IMG/VR virus record: IMGVR_UViG_3300036851_000218 | Span: 1 to 64,000 of that record | Source of the DNA: a virus | DNA length: 64,000 bases | Strand: one strand, 5' to 3' | Shown here: piece by piece, positions 277 to 1,839 of the stretch | Numbering within the stretch: the first letter of the stretch is position 1 | How the letters are laid out: each line of letters starts with the position of its first letter | Program-made: the position numbers and the translations under genes | The notes under the pieces: generated by a model | Told to the model about the DNA's origin: nothing | Databases searched by the model: none | Seen by the model: the letters and a program-made list of their open reading frames with translations, nothing else

Positions 277-305
277 TTGACACCGTTTCGAAGCTGTGGT
301 ACACT
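277..305 (+). promoter_or_regulatory. Sigma70-like promoter for the tRNA array
   Basis: A perfect -35 TTGACA (277-282), a 17-base spacer and a -10 TACACT (300-305) preceded by TGG, an extended -10. The first tRNA starts about 20 bases downstream. The same arrangement recurs at 2629, 4916, 13132, 16394 and 35667. Confidence 0.8.
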
Positions 306-324: not shown

Positions 325-395
325 CATTCATTCGTCTAGTGTTCTAAGACTACTCACATAACCGAGTAACACAGGTTTAAATCCTGTATGAGTGA
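325..395 (+). tRNA. tRNA, isotype uncertain, 8-nt anticodon loop
   Basis: Acceptor arms 325-331 and 388-394 pair over seven positions with one G.U; the D stem is GTCT/AGAC, and the T arm (371-387) has five pairs around TTTAAAT. The best anticodon stem, 351-355 with 364-368, leaves an 8-nt loop (356-363) and only two variable-loop bases. Because of this odd geometry the anticodon cannot be read safely. It may be a degenerate tRNA or one with an expanded loop. Confidence 0.6.
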
Positions 396-432
396 GAACT
401 GACACCTATTTATTGTTATAGTTTTAACAGTA

Positions 433-492
433 GGAATTTCGCTCTCTGTAACGGCTGCTATGGTTGCGTAATGCTCGTAACAGCGGAATTCC
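433..492 (+). repeat. Long hairpin between tRNA genes
   Basis: Bases 433-443 pair with 482-492 over 11 positions (one G.U), and further imperfect pairing (CTGTAACG against CGTAACAG) continues inward. No poly-T tract follows, so it is not a standard terminator. A cloverleaf does not fit because there is no T arm. A role in processing the tRNA transcript is possible but inferred. Confidence 0.55.
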
Positions 493-501
493 ACCTTATA
501 T

Positions 502-597
502 GTCCCTGTCGTCTAGTGGCTCAGGACGACACCCTCTCAAGGTGTAGACGTAGATGTTTTTATATGACATCTTTGAGTTCGAATCTCACCAGGGACA
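502..597 (+). tRNA. tRNA-Glu (CTC) with an extra variable arm
   Basis: The acceptor stem is GTCCCTG (502-508) with CAGGGAC (590-596), and the discriminator is A597. The D arm resembles the tRNA-Glu consensus. Anticodon stem 529-533/541-545 encloses the loop CTCTCAA, giving anticodon CTC, which reads GAG. The variable region contains a 6-bp hairpin (AGATGT/ACATCT), making the gene 96 bases long instead of about 75. The T loop is TTCGAAT, and the T stem has one terminal mismatch. Bacterial glutamate tRNAs normally have a short variable loop, so this class II shape is odd. Confidence 0.8.
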
Positions 598-599
598 CT

Positions 600-679
600 G
601 TTACAGTCAGTTGAATTGGACTCCTTATGTGTAGGTTTGGGGAAACCGACAAATTTAAACTCAATTCACTGGCTGTAAC
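600..679 (+). repeat. Long hairpin between the two arm-bearing tRNA-Glu genes
   Basis: Bases 600-620 pair with about 660-679, some 19 pairs with one bulged T and a few G.U pairs; the outer seven (GTTACAG/CTGTAAC) are perfect. The interior has no normal anticodon or T arm, so I do not call a tRNA. It fills the whole spacer between two tRNA genes, as other hairpins do in this array. Confidence 0.6.
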
Positions 680-682
680 CAC

Positions 683-778
683 GCCCTTATCGTCTAGTGG
701 CTCAGGACGCTGCCCTCTCAAGGCAGAAACGTAGATGTTTTTATATGACATCTTTGAGTTCGAATCTCACTAAGGGCA
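683..778 (+). tRNA. tRNA-Glu (CTC) with an extra variable arm, second copy
   Basis: The acceptor stem is GCCCTTA (683-689) with TAAGGGC (771-777), and the discriminator is A778. Anticodon stem 710-714/722-726 encloses CTCTCAA, anticodon CTC. From about 728 to 770 the sequence matches the first copy base for base, including the extra hairpin (733-738 with 748-753) and T arm, while the acceptor and anticodon stems differ. That suggests duplication with selection, or recombination, keeping the 3' half constant. Confidence 0.8.
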
Positions 779-883: not shown

Positions 884-954
884 GCCCCTATCGTCTAGCG
901 GCAGGACGGCTATCCCTCAGATAGCAGACATCGGTTCGAATCCGGTTAGGGGCA
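884..954 (+). tRNA. tRNA-Glu-like (CTC), normal length
   Basis: The acceptor stem GCCCCTA/TAGGGGC is perfect (884-890, 947-953), discriminator A954. The D arm is like the two longer tRNA-Glu genes. Anticodon stem GCTAT/ATAGC encloses CCCTCAG, giving anticodon CTC but with C at position 33 instead of the near-universal U. The variable loop is short, and the T arm (930-946) is normal with TTCGAAT. The C33 may weaken decoding. Confidence 0.75.
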
Positions 955-1767: not shown

Positions 1768-1839
1768 GGGAGTATAGTTTAATTGGCAGAACACTTGCGC
1801 CTGAGCAAGAGGTTGTAGGTTCGAATCCTACTACACCCA
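1768..1839 (+). tRNA. tRNA, probably Gln (CTG), with a 6-nt anticodon loop
   Basis: Acceptor GGGAGTA/TACACCC has one A.A mismatch. The D stem is GTTT/GAAC, and the T arm (1815-1831) is perfect with loop TTCGAAT. Discriminator A1839. The anticodon stem CTTGC/GCAAG (1794-1798, 1805-1809) encloses only six bases, GCCTGA, one short of normal. The centre reads CTG, suggesting glutamine, but the loop geometry makes that uncertain. Confidence 0.65.

What the first reader, a model, noticed from the sequence alone, without database searches (positions are those of the whole stretch)
502..778. Two tRNA-Glu(CTC) genes with an inserted variable-arm hairpin
Both tRNAs have a glutamate-type body and anticodon CTC, but each carries the same extra 6-bp stem (AGATGT/ACATCT) in the variable region, making them 96 bases long. 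Long variable arms are a mark of class II tRNAs (Leu, Ser, Tyr). The about 40-base 3' half is identical in the two while the acceptor and anticodon stems differ. If a host seryl- or leucyl-tRNA synthetase charges them, GAG codons could be partly recoded. If they are charged with Glu, the arm may protect them from anticodon nucleases.
Basis: partly seen in the sequence, partly recalled or inferred. Interest (0 to 1): 0.7.

Follow-up and report, generated by a model that had tools for sequence, protein, structure and literature searches.

The report
Phage glutamate tRNAs with inserted hairpin
A divergent phage carries two sister glutamate tRNA genes that share an identical 23-base hairpin insertion. 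The hairpin interrupts the base of the T stem and is not a true class II variable arm; the tRNAs most likely still carry glutamate, so this is an unusual tRNA shape rather than a sign of recoding.

Summary
ARAGORN and Rfam both find two 96-nt tRNA-Glu(CUC) genes, at 502-597 and 683-778, each with the same extra hairpin. The 'class II arm' reading needs correcting. Removing exactly 23 nt (TAGATGTTTTTATATGACATCTT) leaves a standard 73-nt class I tRNA-Glu with a 4-nt variable loop and a complete GUGAG/CUCAC T stem. The insert therefore sits about one base pair inside the T stem (49|50), not at the class II position. The two genes differ at 13 sites; 12 form six compensatory double changes in the acceptor and anticodon stems, so both were selected as folded tRNAs. 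The insert is identical in both. Glu identity elements are present apart from C34; the Ser and Leu determinants checked are absent. No genuine tRNA-Glu with such an insert was found in IMG/VR or about 85,000 prokaryotic genomes, although class II-like arms on other class I isoacceptors occur in phage tRNA arrays, including Glu(UUC) in two jumbo phages. Best explanation: host-charged Glu tRNAs with a retained, tolerated hairpin, possibly a shield against tRNases. Splicing and decay remain open. No relatives, expression or charging data exist, so function is inferred.

The parts
502..597 (+). tRNA-Glu(CUC) copy 1, 96 nt (anticodon at 536-538)
551..573 (+). 23-nt hairpin insert in copy 1 (arm 552-557 / 567-572), between T-stem positions 49 and 50 (or 50 and 51; ambiguous by one T)
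   Evidence: its removal gives a perfect 73-nt class I tRNA-Glu
683..778 (+). tRNA-Glu(CUC) copy 2, 96 nt (anticodon at 717-719)
732..754 (+). identical 23-nt hairpin insert in copy 2 (arm 733-738 / 748-753)
884..954 (+). Third tRNA-Glu(CUC), 71 nt, class I, no insert; variable loop AGAC as in copy 1; unusual anticodon loop CCCUCAG with C at position 33
   Evidence: sequence
327..397 (+). tRNA-like element with a Glu-like 5' half (TCGTCTAGTG) and Trp-like 3' half, no G18-G19, 8-nt anticodon loop; not recognised by ARAGORN or Rfam; probable mosaic or decayed tRNA
   Evidence: (repeat D5)
277..305 (+). Sigma-70-like promoter TTGACA-17-TACACT with extended TG, just upstream of the tRNA cluster
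   Evidence: consensus match only
598..682 (+). Long spacer hairpin between the two insert-bearing tRNAs, z = -4.6; possible processing element
405..501 (+). Spacer with a strong hairpin upstream of copy 1, z = -4.0

Best explanation
The two genes make phage tRNAs-Glu that read GAG. They descend from one class I tRNA-Glu(CUC) that acquired a 23-nt hairpin at the base of the T stem; the gene was then duplicated, or the 3' half was copied from one gene to the other. Shown by sequence: excision restores a perfect class I tRNA-Glu, the stems diverged by compensatory changes, and the insert is identical in both. Inferred: the hairpin stays in the mature tRNA and projects from the outer elbow near where class II arms leave; the host GluRS, a class I synthetase that leaves the variable-loop side facing solvent (general knowledge), still charges them with glutamate; they supplement Glu decoding during infection. 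The arm is either tolerated or makes the tRNA a poor substrate for a host tRNase; nothing here decides between these.
For: Both genes are called tRNA-Glu(CUC) with good scores. Removing 23 nt gives 73-nt tRNAs with a 5-bp T stem and a 4-nt variable loop, AGAC as in the third Glu tRNA. Six of six changed pairs are double compensatory changes, against a mean of 3.1 in shuffles, 8/500 reaching 6. Glu determinants from PMC9976931 are present: U11-A24, U13-G22:A46, no residue 47, U35, C36, A37, G1-C72. The phage carries a sigma-70 region 4 domain, pointing to a bacterial host, and a promoter-like site lies upstream of the cluster. Long arms on class I isoacceptors recur in phage tRNA arrays, including Glu(UUC) of 91 nt in two jumbo phages.
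Against: No RNA or charging data. C34 replaces the Glu determinant U34. With the arm formed, the G49-C65 pair costs about 5 kcal/mol in the nearest-neighbour model and is left open in the predicted fold. Other tRNAs of the cluster look eroded: 6-nt and 8-nt anticodon loops, C33, and acceptor/T-stem mismatches in the Trp tRNA. No relative keeps the arm, so its conservation cannot be tested. Published V-loop aptamer insertions in E. coli tRNAs gave only marginal tRNA activity (reported in PMC7590224).
Confidence: 0.58

Rival explanations
1. Decaying tRNA genes: the insert is a harmless scar in tRNAs that the phage no longer needs; the 3' half is identical because of recent gene conversion or recombination.
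For: Neighbours in the cluster look eroded or mosaic. The arm was found in no other phage. GAG is only 28% of Glu codons, so three CUC tRNAs are not obviously needed. None of the T-stem or D-stem pairs differ although 6 of 12 acceptor and anticodon pairs do, which fits 3'-block conversion.
Against: Six compensatory pair changes with no broken pair outside the insert junction; intact D arm, anticodon loop, T loop and acceptor.
Confidence: 0.22
2. Intron-like insert: the 23 nt are removed after transcription, leaving a perfect class I tRNA-Glu.
For: Exact restoration of a canonical tRNA on removal; the insert is identical in both genes.
Against: Far too short for a self-splicing group I or II intron. 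By inspection of the exon-intron junctions, no bulge-helix-bulge with 4-bp exon-intron pairing is formed. The phage carries a bacterial sigma domain, and bacteria lack the archaeal tRNA splicing endonuclease (general knowledge). No RNA ligase or polynucleotide kinase appeared among the 18 Pfam families found or the PHROGs families listed for 53 phage proteins (25 of 43 PHROGs families shown).
Confidence: 0.08
3. Shield against host tRNases: the arm blocks docking of a tRNA-cleaving defence enzyme that destroys host tRNA-Glu, so the phage keeps translating.
For: Phage tRNAs have been proposed to be anticodon-nuclease-insensitive (PMC10264068). RloC prefers tRNA-Glu when overexpressed in E. coli (PMC2610378). 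Three Glu(CUC) genes without codon enrichment.
Against: The proposed evasion in PMC10264068 is by anticodon-loop changes, not arms; the anticodon loops of the two tRNAs (CUCUCAA) look ordinary; host unknown. This is one possible purpose of the main explanation, not exclusive of it.
Confidence: 0.1
4. Recoding: a host SerRS or LeuRS charges these tRNAs through the long arm, so GAG is partly read as Ser or Leu.
For: Presence of a long arm; A73 is shared with Leu tRNAs.
Against: The arm is offset, with about six unpaired bases on its 5' side and inside the T stem. Ser G73 is absent; Leu A15-U48 and A20a are absent; Glu determinants are kept. SerRS rejects allo-tRNAs after a single bulge in the arm stem (PMC7590224).
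Confidence: 0.02

Closest known systems
Ordinary class I bacterial/phage tRNA-Glu(CUC), e.g. Streptomyces phages KimJongPhill and Zuko
   Same: D arm, anticodon loop, Glu determinants, overall body; after excision length 73 nt
   Different: Those genes have no insert (75 nt)
Class II tRNAs (Leu, Ser, Tyr) and tRNA-Sec
   Same: An extra base-paired arm near the variable region
   Different: Here about six unpaired bases precede the arm, the 49-65 pair is split, the determinants checked differ, and the body is Glu
(9/3) and (8/4) allo-tRNAs from metagenomes
   Same: Long arm on a non-standard tRNA with fewer than five T-stem pairs
   Different: Acceptor stem stays 7 bp (U8 faces C65, no extension); D stem is 4 bp; Glu determinants
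Long-armed class I isoacceptors in phage tRNA arrays: Glu(UUC) 91 nt (L022, L023), Ile(UAU) 90-96 nt, Lys, Asn, Cys, Met, Thr
   Same: Class I anticodon with an extra arm, in a phage
   Different: In the examples read in detail (L022/L023 Glu, L010 Asn and Lys-CUU) the arm sits at the usual class II position with a full 5-bp T stem; no sequence similarity in the arm

Membership tests
tRNA (Rfam RF00005) | Cloverleaf above the gathering score | tested here: met
   49.5 and 51.1 bits, threshold 29
tRNA-Glu | Anticodon YUC with A37 | tested here: met
   Loop CUCUCAA, anticodon CUC
tRNA-Glu | U11-A24, U13-G22:A46, absence of residue 47 | tested here: met
   Sequence; A46 and delta47 hold if the insert is placed after G49
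tRNA-Glu | U34 (hypermodified) as strong determinant in E. coli | tested here: not met
   C34 (CUC), as in every Glu(CUC) isoacceptor
tRNA-Glu | Charged with glutamate by GluRS | not testable with these tools
   Needs aminoacylation assay
Class II tRNA | Extra arm between 45 and 48 with a few unpaired bases at its base and a complete 5-bp T stem | tested here: not met
   About six unpaired bases before the arm; T stem is 4 bp with U49-C65 mismatch, or split after G49-C65
tRNA-Leu | A15-U48 Levitt pair and A20a with A73 | tested here: not met
   G15 and U20a; A73 alone is present (sequence)
tRNA-Ser | G73 and class II arm | tested here: not met
   A73 (sequence)
Allo-tRNA (8/4 or 9/3) | Acceptor stem of 8 or 9 bp | tested here: not met
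   7 bp; position 8 U faces C
Archaeal-type tRNA intron | Bulge-helix-bulge at the exon-intron junctions | tested here: not met
   By inspection, no 4-bp exon-intron helix at the 23-nt boundaries; insert hairpin is self-paired

The most novel reading that the evidence does not exclude
A natural tRNA form in which a hairpin grows out of the T stem at 49|50 and is kept because it makes a glutamate tRNA resistant to a host tRNA-cleaving defence, or because it is spliced out by an unknown short-intron mechanism in bacteria.
Probability: 0.12. Interest if true: 0.75.

Novelty: new variant of a known kind. Interest (0 to 1): 0.42.

Why it matters
Acceptor, anticodon and T arms are normally very constant in length. 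Two paralogous tRNAs that kept pairing everywhere else while sharing a hairpin inside the T stem would show that translation tolerates, or a phage exploits, a change at the tRNA elbow. That makes a direct test possible: 96-nt against 73-nt versions of the same tRNA in charging, decoding and tRNase assays.

Tried and rejected
Exact search for the arm in IMG/VR: none. Two degenerate searches for tRNA-Glu with a lengthened variable region in IMG/VR gave 8 and 6 contigs; the hits are ordinary tRNA-Glu genes with a chance downstream match, or a 5'-half match without an intact tRNA-Glu (L009). A control search with ordinary spacing hit its limit at 120 stretches. The same idea in ~85,000 genomes gave 3 contigs: a stretch with an assembly gap (L017), a partial duplication of the tRNA (L018), and a chance downstream match (L019). 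Searches for relatives by DNA polymerase, terminase and helicase in IMG/VR found none. The Streptomyces Comrade match is an unrelated tRNA-like element sharing 25 nt. No held paper found describing a T-stem hairpin insertion in a phage tRNA. Intron, recoding and allo-tRNA readings were weighed and set low.

Full report
Where it is. The window is positions 1-64000 of an 81,401-base virus record. The phage is very divergent: its DNA polymerase, terminase and helicase find no relative in IMG/VR, and the terminase matches known phages at about 22% identity. A sigma-70 region 4 domain, a Mom-like protein, a Clp-type protease and DNA methyltransferases point to a bacterial host. No further tRNA lies in the rest of the record.

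What is there. The first 2 kb hold a tRNA cluster behind a sigma-70-like promoter at 277-305: a tRNA-like element at 327-397, Glu(CUC) at 502-597, Glu(CUC) at 683-778, Glu(CUC) at 884-954, an HNH endonuclease gene, Trp(CCA) at 1560-1632 and a tRNA with a 6-nt anticodon loop at 1768-1839. The two genes of the finding are confirmed by ARAGORN and Rfam, and each folds as a cloverleaf plus an extra hairpin.

The insert. Removing TAGATGTTTTTATATGACATCTT (551-573 and 732-754) gives 73-nt tRNAs with a 4-nt variable loop and a perfect GUGAG/CUCAC T stem. The variable loop of copy 1 is then AGAC, the same as in the third, insert-free Glu tRNA. This argues that the ancestor was a class I tRNA-Glu and that the hairpin entered between positions 49 and 50 (or 50 and 51). 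It is not at the class II position: about six unpaired bases would precede the arm, and the 49-65 pair would be U-C. The sequence of the insert occurs nowhere else in the window or in the rest of the record.

Selection. The copies differ at 13 of 96 positions. Twelve differences make six double compensatory changes, three in the acceptor stem and three in the anticodon stem; the thirteenth is in the variable loop. No pair is broken. Both genes were therefore kept as folded tRNAs. The insert, D arm and T arm show no differences. This can mean constraint or copying of the 3' half between the genes; with only two sequences these cannot be told apart.

Identity. From the published determinants (PMC9976931), U11-A24, U13-G22:A46, absence of 47, U35, C36, A37 and G1-C72 are present; U34 is C34. 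Serine's G73 and leucine's A15-U48 and A20a are absent. A class I synthetase such as GluRS leaves the variable-loop side of the tRNA free (general knowledge), so an added arm there need not block charging.

How unusual. These patterns need a canonical Glu D arm and T loop, so divergent cases would be missed. Among 888 tRNAs in the loci fetched here, 31 of 740 outside Leu/Ser/Tyr/Sec are 80 nt or longer, including Glu(UUC) of 91 nt in two jumbo phages and Ile(UAU) of 90-96 nt. The sample was drawn with tRNA-Glu patterns and is not random. Long arms on class I isoacceptors are thus not unique in phages; in the examples read in detail they sit at the usual class II place.

Function. The best-supported view is host-charged Glu tRNA with a retained hairpin. 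A shield against tRNases is plausible: RloC prefers tRNA-Glu when overexpressed in E. coli (PMC2610378), and phage tRNAs have been proposed to evade anticodon nucleases (PMC10264068). Nothing here tests it. Splicing is unlikely without a known bacterial mechanism. Decay is a real rival, because several neighbours in the cluster look eroded and GAG is not enriched (28% of Glu codons). Published insertions of an aptamer in the variable loop of E. coli tRNAs left only marginal activity (as reported in PMC7590224), so full activity should not be assumed.

Noticed in passing
L030, L047, L051, L081, L109, L111, L114, L117, L132, L134; Lactobacillus phage LpeD (MF787246.1:138772-138862): Phage tRNA-Ile(UAU) genes of 90-96 nt share a long arm whose loop carries a conserved YYAGAT-like motif while the flanking arm bases vary; an unannotated relative of the L051 gene lies in Lactobacillus phage LpeD. 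No held paper describing this was found.
   Followed up: partly
window 1768-1839: tRNA with a 6-nt anticodon loop (GCCUGA); ARAGORN cannot assign an amino acid.
   Followed up: no
window 884-954: tRNA-Glu(CUC) with C at position 33 and a possible C32-G38 pair closing the anticodon loop to 5 nt.
   Followed up: no
window 405-501, 598-682, 1633-1767, 1843-1911: Long spacer hairpins between the tRNAs; the first three have z = -4.0 to -4.6, the last is a weak Rfam match. Possible processing stems.
   Followed up: partly
L022 about 1657-1784 and a second element upstream of the 91-nt Glu tRNA: Jumbo-phage tRNA-like genes with a roughly 55-nt insert in the anticodon region sharing a GAACTTGA..AATAAGGTTC..CAGCAA-like motif.
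   Followed up: no
L013 (Streptomyces phage Comrade), ending near 425: Unannotated tRNA-like element with a long internal insert; its T arm and acceptor 3' strand match copy 1 over 25 nt.
   Followed up: no
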